Of a DNA stretch of 64,000 bases, positions 5,735 to 12,415 are shown in pieces (the stretch's first letter is position 1; every line of letters starts with the position of its first letter). This DNA comes from Armatimonadetes bacterium DC (GTDB lineage Bacteria; Armatimonadota; Fimbriimonadia; Fimbriimonadales; GBS-DC): assembly GCA_001442985.1 (NCBI GenBank), contig LDYB01000014.1, forward strand, positions 1-64,000, given 5' to 3'. A model generated the notes under the pieces. The model ran no database searches. It worked only from the letters and a program-made list of their open reading frames with translations, and had not been told where the DNA came from. The translations under genes and the position numbers were made by a program.

Positions 5735-8089
5735 ATGCGCTCACTGGCACAGGTGTTGATTACAGGCACGGTCTACGCCCTGCTGGGTTGGGTGGGCTTG
5801 CATTATGCTTACCTGCCGACCTCCATCTCGCTCTTGTGGCTCCCAACGGGCTGGGCGATTGGGATGGTGTGGTGGTGGGGGCGCCCTGCGCTGGTGGGCG
5901 CCGCGCTGGCGGTGATGGTGCTTTCGGGGCTTGTGGAAGGCTGGGGCTGGGCTGGGCTGGCTCGGGCGGGCATCAGCTGGATTGCTTATGGCTCGATCAC
6001 GACGCTGCTGCGGCGCTTGAGTTTTGATTCGAACTTCCGCTATCCGCGCGACCTTATCGTGTTCTCGTGCGTGCTGGGGGGCGTGCTGGCGTTTACTGCG
6101 GTTTTACAGAATAGTGTCACGCTGCTCACAGGAGCTTTGTCGCTAAGCGCATTCCGGGAGAACTGGTGGCACTGGTGGGGCGGGAACCTGTTAGGGGGAC
6201 TGCTGATGGCCACGCCCCTGCTGGCGTATCAGCGGTTCAAAACCCTCAAGCTCAAGCACTGGGGCGAGATAGCACTCGCGTCGGGGCTGGTAGTGATGTT
6301 GACCTACTTCGTGCGCATGATTGACCCCTCCCACTATGCGCCGCTCTTGCTGGTGGCGGCGTTCCCGGTGCTGATGTGGGCGACCCTTCGCTTCGAGATT
6401 GCAGGCTTGAGCCTTACCCTGCTCGCGCTGGCGCTGGGATTGGGACCGCCTTTTGGAATGATTGTGCCTTCCGGGGCGGAGCAGATGACGGCGGGGGTCT
6501 TCTTTACTTACTGGCTCTTTCTGGTGATGAGCTATCATACGATGATGGTGCTGGGCATCTATGTGCGCCAGAAGCGCGAGTTTGCCCAGAAACTGGAAGA
6601 TGCTTACCTGCAAATGGAAGCGATTCTGGAAAACGCGCCAACAGTGGCTATTCAGGGCTATGATGCCGAAGGGCGCGTCGTGTTCTGGAACCGCGCCTCT
6701 GAAGAGATGTATGGCTACACGCGCGAGCAGGCGCTGGGCAAAACGCTATCCCAGCTGCTCTTTTCGCCCGAACAGGAGCAGGAATATCGGGTGATGATTC
6801 AGGAAATTCTGCGAACGGGCAAACCTGCACCCCTGAGAGAATGGGAAATCCGTATGGCAGATGGACAGACGCGCTACATCCTTTCCTCGCTGTTCCCCGT
6901 CCGACTGCGTGAAGGAACAGTCGTTATCTGCGCCGATATTGATATCACCGAACGCAAGCGACTGGAAAACCAGCTACTGCAGGCGCAAAAGCTGGAGAGT
7001 GTTGGACGCCTGGCAGGCGGCGTGGCGCACGACTTCAATAATATGCTCGCCGCGATTATGGGATACGCCGAGCTGGGGATGACGCGCGTACCGCCCGATC
7101 ACCCCGTCCAGCAGGACCTGCAACGCATTCTCGAAGCGGCAGAACGATCTGCGAATATCGTGCGTCAGTTACTGGGATTCGCACGCAAACAGTTCGCCCA
7201 GCCACGCCCAACCGACATCAATCAGGTCATTCAGGAAATGCTCCCACTCTTTGAGCATATGCTGGGCAAGGGGGTGGAGGTTAAACTCGAGCTTCACTCT
7301 GCGCCCCAGATTGTGCTGATAGACCCCGCCCAGCTGGAACAGATTCTGATGAACCTCGTGCTGAATGCACGCGACGCGATGCCAAATGGCGGCACCATTA
7401 CCATCCGTACCTCTCCCCGTCGGGTTGAAAAGCCAATTCCTGCGCTCCCCAAGGATGCCCCTCCCGGGGAATACGAATGCCTGAGCGTGCGCGATGAGGG
7501 AATTGGCATCGCGCCCGAAGACTTGCCGCATATTTTTGAACCCTTCTACACCACCAAAGGCGTGTATGGGCACGGGCTGGGGCTGGCAACGGTCTACGGA
7601 ATCGTCGACCAGAATCACGGCTTTCTGCAGGTTTTCAGCCAGCCGGGGCAGGGGACTGAGTTCTGCATCTGCTTCCCACGCTATCCTGAACCTGTTGTCG
7701 CCAAACCCCTGCTGCCGGGCGAAGGTGTCCAGACCCCGCCTGCGCGAATCCTGCTGGTGGAAGACGATAACAGCGTGCGTGAAAGCCTCAGCCTGATGCT
7801 TCAAATGATGGGGCATTCGGTTCATGCCTGCGCAACCCCCGAGGAAGCCTTGGAGGTCAGCCAGCAGAACGCTTTTGACATTCTCATCACCGATGTCGGG
7901 CTGCCCCGAATGGACGGTTATCAGCTCGCGGAACAGCTCGCGCGGCACTGCCCGCAACTCCGATGCATCTTTATGAGCGGTTATCAGGACCCACGCTTGC
8001 CAATCGAGTTGCCCTTGCGTCATGTCTTCTTGTCGAAGCCTTTCAGCTTGCGCCGCCTGCAGGAGGCTCTGAAAGAATTACAAGAATAA
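5735..8089 (+). CDS. MASE1-PAS hybrid sensor histidine kinase with receiver domain
   Basis: A membrane-bound two-component sensor of 784 aa. Residues about 1-290 form a MASE1-like block of eight or so transmembrane helices. A PAS domain follows (about 300-420, ENAPTVAIQGYDAEGRVVFW). HisKA has the phospho-acceptor His432 in GVAHDFNN; HATPase_c has the N box NARDAM, DEGIGIAPEDL and the GHGLGLATVYGI lid. A C-terminal receiver carries RILLVEDDN, phospho-acceptor Asp720 (TDVGLPRMDG) and the Lys of FLSKPFS. The cis receiver with no DNA-binding output domain suggests feedback or a phosphorelay to an unlinked protein. The start is ATG (MRSLAQVL); a TTG 39 nt upstream is in frame but poorer. The ligand is unknown. 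Confidence 0.93.
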   Translation: MRSLAQVLITGTVYALLGWVGLHYAYLPTSISLLWLPTGWAIGMVWWWGRPALVGAALAVMVLSGLVEGWGWAGLARAGISWIAYGSITTLLRRLSFDSNFRYPRDLIVFSCVLGGVLAFTAVLQNSVTLLTGALSLSAFRENWWHWWGGNLLGGLLMATPLLAYQRFKTLKLKHWGEIALASGLVVMLTYFVRMIDPSHYAPLLLVAAFPVLMWATLRFEIAGLSLTLLALALGLGPPFGMIVPSGAEQMTAGVFFTYWLFLVMSYHTMMVLGIYVRQKREFAQKLEDAYLQMEAILENAPTVAIQGYDAEGRVVFWNRASEEMYGYTREQALGKTLSQLLFSPEQEQEYRVMIQEILRTGKPAPLREWEIRMADGQTRYILSSLFPVRLREGTVVICADIDITERKRLENQLLQAQKLESVGRLAGGVAHDFNNMLAAIMGYAELGMTRVPPDHPVQQDLQRILEAAERSANIVRQLLGFARKQFAQPRPTDINQVIQEMLPLFEHMLGKGVEVKLELHSAPQIVLIDPAQLEQILMNLVLNARDAMPNGGTITIRTSPRRVEKPIPALPKDAPPGEYECLSVRDEGIGIAPEDLPHIFEPFYTTKGVYGHGLGLATVYGIVDQNHGFLQVFSQPGQGTEFCICFPRYPEPVVAKPLLPGEGVQTPPARILLVEDDNSVRESLSLMLQMMGHSVHACATPEEALEVSQQNAFDILITDVGLPRMDGYQLAEQLARHCPQLRCIFMSGYQDPRLPIELPLRHVFLSKPFSLRRLQEALKELQE

Positions 8090-8124
8090 CGGAACGCCAG
8101 CCCCCTGCAAACCGTCTGATGTGC

Positions 8125-8130
8125 TATAAT
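8125..8130 (+). promoter_or_regulatory. -10 box (TATAAT) of the matrixin gene
   Basis: A perfect TATAAT lies 18 nt upstream of the start, followed by AAAGGAGGT; this gives a short leader with an ordinary ribosome binding site. Confidence 0.55.
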
Positions 8131-8148
8131 ACCAAAGGAGGTATGCGA

Positions 8149-9657
8149 ATGAAGAACTTTTTCTGGCTTGCGGCACTGAGTTTCTGTTTGGCAGGTACGC
8201 TCGATGCCCAAAGAACGCCGCTTCTGGTTAACAAGCCAATTCACCCTTCGTGGGCACCCCTCTGGGATTGGGAGCGAGCGCCTTCGATGGAGGCGCGCCA
8301 TGCGTTGATTTCCGCGCTCACCGGGGTTGAAGGGGTGGGCACTTGCTGTGCCGAGGGGGTGAGCCATGACGGGCTGCCCCTGCACCTGTGCTTTGCGCCG
8401 GGTACTCCGCCCGAATATGTGGAGTATGTCTCGCGCCTGATTTTTGGCGACTTTTCTCCTGCCTATAATGCAGGGGCGCGCTGGACCAGCACTTCCTACG
8501 GCAGCACCGGCTCGACAGGGGCTCCCATCCGTTTGCGCTGGAGCTTTGTGCCCGATGGAACCCTGCTCCCGGGGCTGTCGGGCGGTTCGCAACCCAGCAA
8601 CCTGTTCAGTAGTATGAACAGTAAGTTTGGCAACAACACCACCCTCTGGCAGAATCAGTTCCGCAACAGCTTTACCCGCTGGTCGCAGGTAGCAGGGGTT
8701 CGCTACGAAGAAGTGGGCGACGACGGCGCGGCGTTTCCAGACTCCTCAGGCTCCGCCACCGCGCCGCGCGGCGATGTGCGCATCGGCGCCCGCCCCTTAG
8801 ACGGAGGTGGCGGCGTGCTGGCGTTCAACTACTTCCCTAACATAGGCGACATGGTGCTGGACTCCAGCGAGAACTGGCAGTCCAGCTCGGGCACCTACCG
8901 CTTCCTGCGCAACACCGTGATGCACGAACACGGGCATGGTTTGGCACTGGGGCATGTAATCCCCACCGACCGCACGAAGTTGATGGAACCTTACCTCAAT
9001 ACAAACTTTGATGGTCCTCAGGATGACGATATTCGCGGTGCGCAGCGCCTTTATGGCGACCCCTACGAGCTCAACAATACCGCCGCGACCGCAACTCCCA
9101 TCGATATGACAAGCACAAACACCACCACTCTGGACATGGCGAGCCTCGACCGCACCGCGGATGTGGACTGGTATCGCCTGACGATACCCCCCAGCCGGCG
9201 CCTCACGATCACCGTAACCCCCGTTGGCGCTGCCTATCAGGTCGGACCTGACGGCGGCACGGCAACAAGCATCGATACGCGCCTGATCCAGAATCTGCAA
9301 CTGGAGCTGCGCGCCTCCAACGGCACCACGGTTCTTGCCACAGCGAACAGCAACGGCGTGGGAGTGCCCGAACAGATTCTCAACTATCTGCTACCCCCGG
9401 CAGGCGGCACTTTCTATGCGCGGGTCTTTTCGGGGAGTGGCTCCACCAACGATGTCCAGCGCTACCGCATTACTGTGCAAACAACCGCCCTGCCTGCAGG
9501 CGATGTGGATGGCAACGGCTGCGTGGATGACGCGGACCTGCTGGCTATCCTGTTCGGGTTCGGGGGCAACGACCCCGCGCTGGATCTGGACGGCAACGGC
9601 GTGGTGGACGATGCCGACCTGCTGACCCTGCTGTTTAACTTCAGCGCAGGATGCTGA
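8149..9657 (+). CDS. Secreted matrixin-like metalloprotease with dockerin-like tail
   Basis: A 502-aa exported protein: signal peptide (MKNFFWLAALSFCLAGTLDA), a metzincin catalytic domain, a PPC-like beta domain (about 300-450, starting YELNNTAATATPIDM), and a C-terminal pair of Ca-binding-type repeats (GDVDGNGCVDDADLL and LDGNGVVDDADLL) ending Ala-Gly-Cys. The zinc site is HEHGHGLALGH (His259, Glu260, His263, His269) with a downstream Met-turn candidate LMEPYL. In the consensus HExxHxxGxxH the Gly is replaced here by Ala266. The second of two nearby ATGs is chosen because AAGGAGGT is 7 nt before it. A terminator-like hairpin follows. Confidence 0.88.
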   Translation: MKNFFWLAALSFCLAGTLDAQRTPLLVNKPIHPSWAPLWDWERAPSMEARHALISALTGVEGVGTCCAEGVSHDGLPLHLCFAPGTPPEYVEYVSRLIFGDFSPAYNAGARWTSTSYGSTGSTGAPIRLRWSFVPDGTLLPGLSGGSQPSNLFSSMNSKFGNNTTLWQNQFRNSFTRWSQVAGVRYEEVGDDGAAFPDSSGSATAPRGDVRIGARPLDGGGGVLAFNYFPNIGDMVLDSSENWQSSSGTYRFLRNTVMHEHGHGLALGHVIPTDRTKLMEPYLNTNFDGPQDDDIRGAQRLYGDPYELNNTAATATPIDMTSTNTTTLDMASLDRTADVDWYRLTIPPSRRLTITVTPVGAAYQVGPDGGTATSIDTRLIQNLQLELRASNGTTVLATANSNGVGVPEQILNYLLPPAGGTFYARVFSGSGSTNDVQRYRITVQTTALPAGDVDGNGCVDDADLLAILFGFGGNDPALDLDGNGVVDDADLLTLLFNFSAGC

Positions 9658-9678
9658 AATTCGCACGGAGACCTTCCC

Positions 9679-9714
9679 CACGCCCCTCCACGGATTTCGG
9701 GAGGGGCGTGCTTT
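9679..9714 (+). terminator. Intrinsic terminator-like hairpin after the matrixin gene
   Basis: CACGCCCCTCC (9679-9689) pairs with GGAGGGGCGTG (9700-9710), an 11-bp stem with a 10-nt loop, followed only by CTTTAATT. It separates the protease gene from the rpsO promoter. Confidence 0.65.
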
Positions 9715-9728
9715 AATTGGCAATCGGG

Positions 9729-9734
9729 TATAAT
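9729..9734 (+). promoter_or_regulatory. -10 box (TATAAT) of rpsO-pnp
   Basis: A perfect TATAAT gives +1 near 9741, leaving a leader of about 116 nt before rpsO. Confidence 0.6.
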
Positions 9735-9744
9735 CTCTGTCAAT

Positions 9745-9823
9745 CGCTGGAGAGAAGCGGTCGGCGCCGTTTGATGAGGGCGCTTCAGCGCTCTGATGAA
9801 ACGGCAGCGGCCTCTCTCCAGCG
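9745..9823 (+). promoter_or_regulatory. Structured rpsO leader RNA, candidate S15 autoregulatory element
   Basis: The leader folds into one long imperfect hairpin. The closing stem is CGCTGGAGAGA (9745-9755) with TCTCTCCAGCG (9813-9823), 11 perfect pairs. Inside, GGTC pairs with GGCC (9759-9762/9809-9812, one wobble) and GCCGTTT pairs with AAACGGC (9766-9772/9799-9805). A symmetric GATG/GATG internal loop (9773-9776/9795-9798) follows, then AGGGCGC/GCGCTCT closed by TTCA. Ribosomal protein S15 represses its own mRNA through different leader folds in several bacterial groups; that this fold does the same is inferred from its position. Confidence 0.6.
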
Positions 9824-9856
9824 ACACACCAGTAAGGAGGTAAGGAGGAAAACAGC

Positions 9857-10132
9857 ATGCCGCTGACACCGGAACAGAAACGACAGATTATCGAGGAGTT
9901 CAAGCGACACGAGGGCGACACAGGGTCTCCCGAGGTGCAAATCGCCCTGCTGACCGCTCGCATCAATCAGCTCACCGAACACCTGAAAAAACACCGCAAG
10001 GATTTCCACTCCCGACGCGGGCTGGTGATGCTGGTTGGGCAACGCCGACAACTGCTGAACTATCTCGCCAACGAAGACATTCAACGCTACCGTGCGCTCG
10101 TAGAGAAGTTAGGACTGCGTTCGCAGCGCTAA
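9857..10132 (+). CDS. rpsO: 30S ribosomal protein S15
   Basis: The primary 16S rRNA-binding protein of the small-subunit platform, 91 aa against the usual 88-89. Family signatures are visible: [20 protein letters not shown], then [23 protein letters not shown] and [20 protein letters not shown]. The ATG follows TAAGGAGG with a 9-nt spacer. It is the first gene of an rpsO-pnp transcription unit, an order conserved across many bacteria, and is preceded by a strongly structured leader. Confidence 0.98.
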
Positions 10133-10147
10133 GAGGAGGTTTTTTAT

Positions 10148-12415
10148 ATGCAACGCTATGCATTAGTTTCCGCCGAAATCGGCGGACGCGAGTTGTCGCT
10201 GGAGACAGGTCTGCTCGCTAATCAGGCTTCTGGGGCGGTCGTCGTGCGCTACGGCGATACGGTGGTGCTGGTCACCGCCACGATGAGCCCCAAAGCGCGA
10301 ACCGATATCGATTTTTTCCCGCTGATTGTAGACTTTGAGGAGCGCAAATACGCCGTCGGCAAGATTCCGGGCGGCTTCCTGAAACGCGGGGGACGCCCTT
10401 CTGACGAATCCATCGTGCAGGGGCGACTGGTGGACCGCGCTATCCGCCCGCTCTTCCCCAAAGGGATGCGCAACGAGGTGCAGGTGATTGTGCTACCCCT
10501 CTCGGTGGACTTCGACAACCCTCCCGCCGTGCTGGGCATTATCGGCGCGTCGGCGGCGCTGAGCATCTCCCCCATCCCGTGGAACGGACCGCTGGGCGCC
10601 GTCCGCATCGGCTATGTGAATGGCGACTTTATCGTCAATCCCACCAGCGAGCTGAGCGAGATGTCAGCGCTGGAGCTGGTGGTCGCCAGCCGCCCCGACC
10701 ATGTGATGATGATTGAGGCGGACGCCGATCAGGTGCCCGAAGAGGTGATGATGCAAGCCATCACCCTCGCGCACGAGGTCAATCAGCAGGTGATTGCGCT
10801 GATTGAGGAACTCAAAGCGCAGGCGGGTCAACCCAAAGCCGAAATCACCTACTATCTGGTCAGCGACGAACTCAAAGAGGCGGTCAAGCGGTTTGCGGGC
10901 GATTCGCTCAAACAGGCGATTCAGAACCCCGACAAGCTCGCGCGTGAGGCAGGGCTGACCCAGCTCAAAGAGGAAATCGTCACCCAGATGAACACCCCCA
11001 CCGACCCTGAGCTGCCGCCTCCCTATGAAGGGCGCGAGCTGGAACTCTCGATGGCGGTGGACGAGGTCATCAAAGAGACGGTGCGCCAGCTGATTCTGGA
11101 GGAGGGCAAACGCCCCGATGGACGCGCGCCCAACGAAATCCGCGAAATCCGCTGTGCTGTCGGCTTCCTGCCGCGCACCCACGGCAGCGGGCTGTTCCAG
11201 CGCGGACAAACGCAGGTACTGACCACCTGTACACTCGGCTCCCTGCACGAAGCCCAGATTCTGGACGCCCTCAGCGAGGAAGAGACCAAACGCTATATGC
11301 ACTTCTACAACTTCCCGCCGTTCAGCGTGGGCGAGGTGCGTCCTCTGCGTGGGGCAGGACGCCGCGAGGTCGGACACGGCATGCTCGCCGAACGCGCCCT
11401 CGTGCGCATGATCCCACCCGAAGAGGAGTTCCCCTACGCCATCCTGCTCTACTCGGAGGTGCTGGAATCGAACGGTTCCACCTCGATGGCGAGCGTGTGC
11501 GGCAGTACCCTCGCGCTGATGGATGCGGGCGTGCCCATCAAAGCGCCCGTCGCGGGCATCGCCACCGGACTCGTGTACGAAAGCGATGAGCGCTATGAGC
11601 TGCTGACCGACATTCAGGGGATGGAAGATGCCTGCGGCGATATGGACTTCAAAGTGGCGGGCACGCAAACGGGTATCACCGCGATCCAGCTGGACCTGAA
11701 AATCCCGGGCTTGCCGATGCATATTATCGCTGAGACTCTCCAGCGGGCGCGCGAGGCACGGCTGTTCATCCTGCAGAAGATGCTGGAGGTCATCCCCGAG
11801 CCGCGTCCGGAGGTGTCGCCACGCGCACCGCGCATCTTCGTGATGGAGATTAGCCCCGACAAGATTGGCGAGGTGATTGGACCGGGCGGGAAGATGGTCA
11901 AAAAGATAACCGCCGAGACCGGAGCGCAGATTCAGATTGAGCAGACGGGCAAGGTGTTTATCGCCGCGCCTGACGGCGAATCGGGCGAACGCGCGCGCCA
12001 GATGATCGAGGCGCTCACCAAAGAGATTGCCGTCGGCGAGGTCTACACAGGGCGCGTGACGCGCCTGATGTCGCGTGGCGCGTTCGTGGAGATTCTGCCG
12101 GGCAAGGAAGGGCTGGTGGAACTGCGCGAGCTGACCGATCGGCGCATCAGCCGCCCCGACGAGGTGGTCAAGGTCGGCGATGTGTTGCGCGTGCGCGTCA
12201 AGGAGATTGACGGGCTGGGACGCATTAACCTCAGCGCCCGCGGGCTGGAGCAGACGCTCGAGACGCTCAAAGGCGGCGCGCCTGCCCAAACTCAGGGCGC
12301 ACGCCCGCCGCATCCGCCGCGCCCTGCGCCCCCACGCCCTCAGCGCGAACCCGAACGCCCAAAACCCGAACCGACTGAAGAGCTGCCCAAGCCGCAGTTC
12401 CGACCGAAACGCTGA
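10148..12415 (+). CDS. pnp: Polyribonucleotide nucleotidyltransferase (PNPase)
   Basis: The 3'-5' phosphorolytic exoribonuclease of mRNA decay, a homotrimer in the cytoplasm. The 755 aa contain two RNase PH domains (about 1-230 and 320-550, the second with GSGLFQRGQTQVL and the metal-binding DACGDMDFKVAGT), a KH domain (EVIGPGGKMVKKITAETGAQ) and an S1 domain (GEVYTGRVTRLMSRGAFVEI). A Pro/Arg-rich tail of about 45 residues follows, longer than in most PNPases and perhaps an RNA or protein contact. A GAGGAGG ribosome binding site precedes the ATG, 15 nt after rpsO. carA follows 3 nt after its stop codon. Confidence 0.98.
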   Translation: MQRYALVSAEIGGRELSLETGLLANQASGAVVVRYGDTVVLVTATMSPKARTDIDFFPLIVDFEERKYAVGKIPGGFLKRGGRPSDESIVQGRLVDRAIRPLFPKGMRNEVQVIVLPLSVDFDNPPAVLGIIGASAALSISPIPWNGPLGAVRIGYVNGDFIVNPTSELSEMSALELVVASRPDHVMMIEADADQVPEEVMMQAITLAHEVNQQVIALIEELKAQAGQPKAEITYYLVSDELKEAVKRFAGDSLKQAIQNPDKLAREAGLTQLKEEIVTQMNTPTDPELPPPYEGRELELSMAVDEVIKETVRQLILEEGKRPDGRAPNEIREIRCAVGFLPRTHGSGLFQRGQTQVLTTCTLGSLHEAQILDALSEEETKRYMHFYNFPPFSVGEVRPLRGAGRREVGHGMLAERALVRMIPPEEEFPYAILLYSEVLESNGSTSMASVCGSTLALMDAGVPIKAPVAGIATGLVYESDERYELLTDIQGMEDACGDMDFKVAGTQTGITAIQLDLKIPGLPMHIIAETLQRAREARLFILQKMLEVIPEPRPEVSPRAPRIFVMEISPDKIGEVIGPGGKMVKKITAETGAQIQIEQTGKVFIAAPDGESGERARQMIEALTKEIAVGEVYTGRVTRLMSRGAFVEILPGKEGLVELRELTDRRISRPDEVVKVGDVLRVRVKEIDGLGRINLSARGLEQTLETLKGGAPAQTQGARPPHPPRPAPPRPQREPERPKPEPTEELPKPQFRPKR

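What the first reader, a model, noticed from the sequence alone, without database searches (positions are those of the whole stretch)
9735..9856. rpsO leader with a long hairpin unlike the standard S15-binding folds
The leader contains an 11-bp perfect closing stem, two inner stems, a symmetric GATG/GATG internal loop and a TTCA-capped top helix, all directly before the ribosome binding site. S15 autoregulates through unrelated leader folds in E. coli, Geobacillus, Thermus and others; this single-armed architecture does not obviously match one of them.
Basis: partly seen in the sequence, partly recalled or inferred. Interest (0 to 1): 0.62.

Follow-up and report, generated by a model that had tools for sequence, protein, structure and literature searches.

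The report
Conserved hairpin leader of rpsO-pnp
The hairpin in front of the S15 ribosomal-protein gene is a real RNA structure kept across a whole order of bacteria, but wherever S15 and its neighbour, the RNA-degrading enzyme PNPase, have been moved apart it is always found at the PNPase gene, so it probably controls PNPase rather than S15.

Summary
The hairpin is real (window 9744-9824, z -5.4) and starts about 3 nt after a predicted transcription start. It is a divergent member of an RNA element found throughout the order Fimbriimonadales (Armatimonadota). The core covaries strongly: 10 of 17 pairs change on both sides. Covariance models place it in front of rpsO or pnp in 93 of 113 genomes of the order, almost always once per genome. 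They find it in none of about 178 other genomes of the phylum, and Rfam has no match.

The S15 reading is the part that fails. In 64 genomes the element precedes an intact rpsO-pnp operon, where the two genes cannot be told apart. In 17 genomes with rpsO and pnp separated, the element lies directly before pnp in all 17 and before rpsO in only 3, each of which also has a pnp copy. The arrangement changed at least 3 times, parsimoniously about 6-8.

The best reading is a 5'-terminal pnp leader hairpin. By analogy with E. coli it would mediate PNPase autoregulation, probably by RNase III processing. The gene link and the fold are shown; ligand and mechanism are inferred. A second hairpin next to rpsO in one sub-clade is a better S15-leader candidate.

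The parts
9729..9734 (+). TATAAT, predicted -10 box of the rpsO-pnp transcription unit (TSS expected near 9741)
   Evidence: Sequence. In 46 of 50 relatives a -10-like hexamer ends 22-32 nt before the core, against 4.7% of shuffles. The generic sigma-70 scan does not list it, as no good -35 is present.
9744..9824 (+). complete 5'-terminal leader hairpin
   Evidence: Fold z -5.4; anatomy.
9744..9755 (+). 5' arm of the 12-bp outer stem (pairs with 9813-9824)
   Evidence: Own 5' and 3' flanks pair at -31.6 kcal/mol; none of the swapped flanks of relatives does as well.
9813..9824 (+). 3' arm of the outer stem
9766..9805 (+). conserved core (P1 GCCGUUU/AAACGGC, two G.G mismatches around AU/UA, 7-bp apical helix, UUCA loop)
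   Evidence: Best hit of model R2 in the 64-kb window: 22.1 bits, E 0.0012, built without this sequence. R1 gives 19.1 bits.
9835..9850 (+). two tandem Shine-Dalgarno-like AAGGAGG motifs, outside the hairpin
   Evidence: Sequence; not part of the hairpin in the fold.
9857..10132 (+). rpsO, ribosomal protein S15 (91 aa)
   Evidence: ORF; homologues in 108 of 113 genomes of the order.
10148..12415 (+). pnp, polynucleotide phosphorylase (755 aa), the gene to which the element is linked across the order
   Evidence: ORF; order-wide search and linkage table.

Best explanation
The hairpin is the 5'-terminal leader RNA of the pnp transcription unit, which in this genome includes rpsO. It belongs to a Fimbriimonadales-wide structured element. 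The transcript begins at or within a few bases of the outer stem, so the whole 5' end is folded into one long irregular duplex of about 33 bp while the Shine-Dalgarno sequence stays free. The most likely function is cis-acting feedback control of PNPase through mRNA decay or processing. RNase III would cut the long stem, the 5' arm would stay annealed and shield the new 5' end, and PNPase would digest that arm (or bind the leader) and so trigger decay when it is plentiful, as in E. coli pnp. SHOWN: existence, covariation, position behind a predicted promoter, gene specificity and linkage to pnp when the operon is split. INFERRED: PNPase as effector, RNase III cleavage, and the direction of regulation.
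For: Covariation: 93% of cells paired, 10 of 17 pairs with changes on both sides, score 0.471 against 0.173 in shuffles and 0.153 or less when slid; same with an enlarged set. Linkage: R1 finds the element in place in 83 genomes, and R2 adds 10 in the window's own family. Where rpsO and pnp are unlinked or more than 260 nt apart, the element lies 72-185 nt before the pnp match and not before rpsO in 13 genomes plus G053. G065, G026 and G043 have a copy before both genes. The pnp tree needs 6 changes for the 14 separated genomes (at least 3 forced by starred branches), or 8 with the two-copy genomes. No hits outside the order in the phylum. A -10 box lies 22-32 nt before the core in 46 of 50. 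RNase III is encoded in this genome. In E. coli, PNPase promotes decay of its own mRNA by digesting a short protective RNA (PMC10362022), RNase III cuts the pnp 5' UTR (PMC5371410), and Streptomyces has an RNase III-cut hairpin before pnp (PMC5872136).
Against: Most P1 pairs, including a U.G wobble, are nearly invariant. That suggests sequence-specific recognition, which RNase III and PNPase are not known for. Three genomes keep a copy before rpsO as well. No transcript or cleavage data exist. R1 finds no homologue in the E. coli rpsO-pnp region. G002, in the same family, has rpsO and pnp but no element upstream, so it is dispensable there.
Confidence: 0.6

Rival explanations
1. S15 autoregulatory leader: excess S15 binds the hairpin and represses rpsO-pnp, possibly through the conserved U.G next to G-C pairs or the G.G mismatches.
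For: In 64 genomes the element directly precedes rpsO. Known S15 leaders use stacked G-C/G-U pairs (PMC7247131), and the Thermus leader has a G-G mismatch in place of the GU/GC motif (PMC4684408). Conserved U.G and G.U pairs, about 9 bp apart, are seen here.
Against: When rpsO stands alone the element is absent in 14 of 17 cases and stays with pnp in all 17. The order of the wobble and the G-C pair is not that of 16S helix 22 (own knowledge of 16S). The Shine-Dalgarno is not in the structure. A different conserved hairpin abuts rpsO in one sub-clade and stays with rpsO in G053.
Confidence: 0.12
2. A leader recognised by some other RNA-binding protein, or a passive 5'-end stabiliser or RNase III site without feedback, that sets pnp mRNA lifetime.
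For: 5'-terminal position and a long duplex of about 33 bp fit a stabiliser. Near-invariant P1 nucleotides suggest a specific binder.
Against: About one element per genome, only at pnp or rpsO-pnp, argues for gene-specific control. A passive stabiliser would not need an invariant P1 sequence.
Confidence: 0.23
3. A DNA-level feature: operator palindrome, mobile inverted repeat or transcription terminator.
For: The window copy is almost a perfect palindrome; both strands score similarly with R2.
Against: Elsewhere the models are strongly strand-specific (L205: 49.4 against 17.9 bits), and U.G and G.G positions are conserved, as expected of RNA. No other copies in the genome. No T-run after the hairpin.
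Confidence: 0.03

Closest known systems
E. coli pnp leader (RNase III / PNPase autoregulation)
   Same: A single-armed long irregular hairpin directly upstream of pnp (folded from NC_000913.3); rpsO-pnp context; E. coli RNase III cuts it (PMC5371410) and PNPase digests a protective short RNA (PMC10362022).
   Different: No covariance-model similarity. In E. coli it lies between rpsO and pnp behind its own promoter; here it usually precedes rpsO. The order-specific core GCCGUU..AGCGGC was not recognised in E. coli. Cleavage here is untested.
Streptomyces rpsO-pnp intergenic hairpin (PMC5872136)
   Same: Hairpin linked to pnp, cleaved by RNase III.
   Different: Intergenic position; not compared by sequence here.
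S15 (rpsO) leaders of E. coli, Geobacillus, Thermus, Rhizobium, Actinobacteria, Chlamydia, Flavobacteria and Archaea (PMC4137082, PMC4684408, PMC7247131)
   Same: Upstream of rpsO; conserved G.U next to G-C; G.G mismatch as in the Thermus leader.
   Different: No three-way junction or pseudoknot seen, free Shine-Dalgarno, no Rfam match, and the element follows pnp rather than rpsO.

Membership tests
Rfam S15 leader families / any Rfam family | Score above gathering threshold | tested here: not met
   Window 8000-12000 with permissive E-value: no r-protein leader. Seven relatives at gathering threshold: none.
S15 autoregulatory leader (functional class) | Stays linked to rpsO | tested here: not met
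   Absent before rpsO in 14 of 17 genomes with separated genes.
S15 autoregulatory leader (functional class) | GU/GC motif or three-way junction mimicking 16S h20-h22 | tested here: inconclusive
   G.U next to G-C conserved but in a different order from 16S; no junction. Window copy has U-A at the P1 position.
S15 autoregulatory leader (functional class) | Binds S15 | not testable with these tools
   Needs a binding assay.
PNPase-autoregulatory pnp leader (functional class) | Long hairpin in the 5' UTR of the pnp mRNA | tested here: met
   Directly before pnp in 17 of 17 split genomes; behind a -10 box in 46 of 50 leaders. Transcript start itself is predicted, not mapped.
PNPase-autoregulatory pnp leader (functional class) | Double-stranded stretch long enough for RNase III, and RNase III present | tested here: met
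   About 33 bp in the window; RNase III domain in G000.
PNPase-autoregulatory pnp leader (functional class) | RNase III cleavage and PNPase-dependent decay | not testable with these tools
   Needs RNA experiments.
E. coli pnp leader by homology | Sequence/structure-model match | tested here: not met
   R1 on the E. coli rpsO-pnp region, filters off: best 6.2 bits, outside the leader.
Fimbriimonadales R1/R2 element | Window hairpin recognised by a model built without it | tested here: met
   R2: 22.1 bits, E 0.0012, top hit in 64 kb at 9766-9805. R1 full-window search missed it but gives 19.1 bits locally.

The most novel reading that the evidence does not exclude
An unreported order-wide structured RNA family in Armatimonadota is a PNPase (not S15) feedback element with a sequence-specific, pseudo-symmetric core (GUUG-N4-GAGC on both strands). 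It would have evolved independently of the E. coli pnp leader, with the neighbouring rpsO controlled, in at least one sub-clade, by a separate hairpin.
Probability: 0.5. Interest if true: 0.62.

Novelty: new variant of a known kind. Interest (0 to 1): 0.52.

Why it matters
PNPase autoregulation by a leader hairpin is worked out mainly in E. coli. A second, unrelated and deeply conserved pnp leader would show that the strategy arose more than once, and it gives a defined core to test. It is also a caution for naming ribosomal leaders by the first gene downstream: the obvious ligand (S15) is contradicted as soon as genomes with a split operon are examined.

Tried and rejected
Mobile or repeated element: no second copy in the genome. 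Rfam: only sub-threshold miRNA, snoRNA and CRISPR-repeat chance matches. Terminator: no T-run. Homology to the E. coli pnp leader: no model match. The GATG motif as the conserved feature: specific to this genome. R1 alone missed the window copy in a full-window search, so R2 was built with the window's family but without the window. Outer-stem coevolution by swapped flanks was clear for the window and most of its family but modest overall: 24 of 50 leaders at or below 5%. Weak hits elsewhere in G093, G059 and G032 (E 0.02-0.1) were treated as chance. Literature: the library search for Armatimonadetes with rpsO gave one unrelated Paenibacillus paper, Fimbriimonadales with RNA gave no leader paper among those listed, and PMC125756 and PMC2648360 are not held.

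Full report
OBSERVATION. The window lies in a Fimbriimonadales (Armatimonadota) genome; the closest named rpsO hits are Fimbriimonadales MAGs. Window 9744-9824 folds into one long irregular hairpin: a 12-bp perfect outer stem, a 3-nt bulge, a 5-bp stem, a 2x2 loop, GCCGUUU/AAACGGC, two G.G mismatches around A-U/U-A, a 7-bp helix and a UUCA loop. It is far more stable than shuffles (z -5.4). TATAAT at 9729-9734 puts the expected transcript start near 9741, so the hairpin would be the 5' end of the mRNA. Two AAGGAGG motifs and rpsO (9857) follow, then pnp (10148).

COMPARATIVE EVIDENCE. rpsO leaders from 60 relatives were read. Fifty leaders, the window's included, carry a core recognised by eye as GCCGUUG-N4-GAGcc..loop..ggUUG-N4-GAGCGGC or a variant of it, plus an outer stem. 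Folded alone, most cores outside the window's family give the same outline: 6 bp, 1x1, 4 bp, 1x1, apical helix. In the window the two mismatches enclose 2 bp; in its sister genus g5 usually only one mismatch remains; in G001 the stem is fully paired.

Covariation is strong: 10 of 17 pairs change on both sides, score 0.471 against 0.173 shuffled and 0.153 or less slid. A second alignment with the window's family gives 11 of 17. By contrast P1 (CCGUU/AGCGG) hardly varies and keeps a U.G wobble in 24 of 26 sequences, which looks like a recognition site. Of 50 outer stems, 24 pair better than 95% of swapped flanks.

Covariance models R1 and R2 find the element in 93 of the order's 113 genomes at the rpsO/pnp locus. 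They find nothing in the roughly 178 other genomes of the phylum. The window copy is recovered by R2, which was built without it, as the top hit of 64 kb (22.1 bits, E 0.0012). It is a divergent member: R1 missed it in a full-window search, and genome-scale searches with their stricter filters do not report it.

WHICH GENE DOES IT SERVE? In the common arrangement, element-rpsO-pnp (64 genomes), linkage cannot say. Where the genes are split it can. G037, G108, G027, G063, G058, G098, G083, G081, G060, G082, G030, G091, G080 and G053 all have the element directly upstream of pnp and none upstream of rpsO. G065, G026 and G043 have one before each gene. So pnp has it in 17 of 17 and rpsO in 3 of 17. 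On a pnp tree the 14 separated genomes need 6 changes, at least 3 of them forced by starred branches. Several of these genera group together and share an extended version (CCUGGAUGCGUGCCGUUC...), so the 17 genomes are not 17 independent observations.

MECHANISM. The element lies at the predicted 5' end: a -10 box lies 22-32 nt before the core in 46 of 50 leaders, against 4.7% of shuffles. It leaves the Shine-Dalgarno free in the window, is a long duplex, and is tied to the gene of a 3'-5' exonuclease. In E. coli, RNase III cuts a hairpin in the pnp 5' UTR (PMC5371410) and PNPase promotes decay of its own mRNA by digesting a short protective RNA (PMC10362022). Streptomyces has an RNase III-cut hairpin upstream of pnp (PMC5872136). 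The E. coli leader, folded here, is likewise one long single arm, but R1 does not recognise it. The best explanation is therefore functional analogy, not homology: a pnp leader for PNPase feedback. That PNPase or RNase III act on it is inference. The invariant P1 is the main argument that some other, sequence-specific protein takes part.

S15. Known S15 leaders rely on stacked G-C/G-U pairs or a three-way junction (PMC7247131; PMC4684408). The element has conserved G.U next to C-G and G.G mismatches, so S15 binding cannot be excluded by sequence. But an S15 operator should not leave rpsO when the genes part. A second hairpin directly upstream of rpsO, with an invariant ACGG and 6 of 11 pairs showing double changes, occurs in g11, g25 and g29. 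In G053 rpsO has only this hairpin and pnp has only the R1 element. It is the better S15-leader candidate, on few sequences.

NOVELTY. No Rfam family matches, and no paper found in the library describes a leader in this lineage (most subscription papers are not held). I rate it a new variant of a known kind.

Noticed in passing
L210 (rpsO of G053); L031, L144, L125, L124, L235, L038, L140, L193, L191 between the element and the rpsO start: A second conserved hairpin just upstream of rpsO (for example CCUGGAGCG-UUCGAGAAACACGG-CGCACCUGG, invariant ACGG; 6 of 11 pairs with double changes). In G053 it stays with rpsO while the R1 element stays with pnp: candidate genuine S15 leader.
   Followed up: partly
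G065 C46 (L203, L204); G026 C4 (L202); G043 C4 (L201): Three genomes carry two copies of the element, one before rpsO and one before pnp; in G026 and G043 the second copy has its own TATACT box, like the two-promoter layout of E. coli.
   Followed up: partly
G002 C21, upstream of rpsO 33752 (L011): Same-family genome with rpsO-pnp intact but no element: a TATACT box lies only about 45 nt before the ATG, so the leader seems to have been lost.
   Followed up: no
L180, L182, L187, L189, L192, L196, L205, L206, L209: The pnp-only versions share an extended conserved context, CCUGGAUGCGUGCCGUUC...GAGCGGCAUUC(A/G)GAC, which predicts a fixed bulge next to P1.
   Followed up: no
window 9680-9713: G+C-rich inverted repeat CACGCCCCTCC...GGAGGGGCGTG followed by CTTTAATT, a possible weak terminator of the upstream ORF (7963-9657), which looks like a secreted metallopeptidase with a C-terminal dockerin-like repeat.
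   Followed up: no
window 9835-9850: Two tandem AAGGAGG Shine-Dalgarno-like motifs before rpsO.
   Followed up: no
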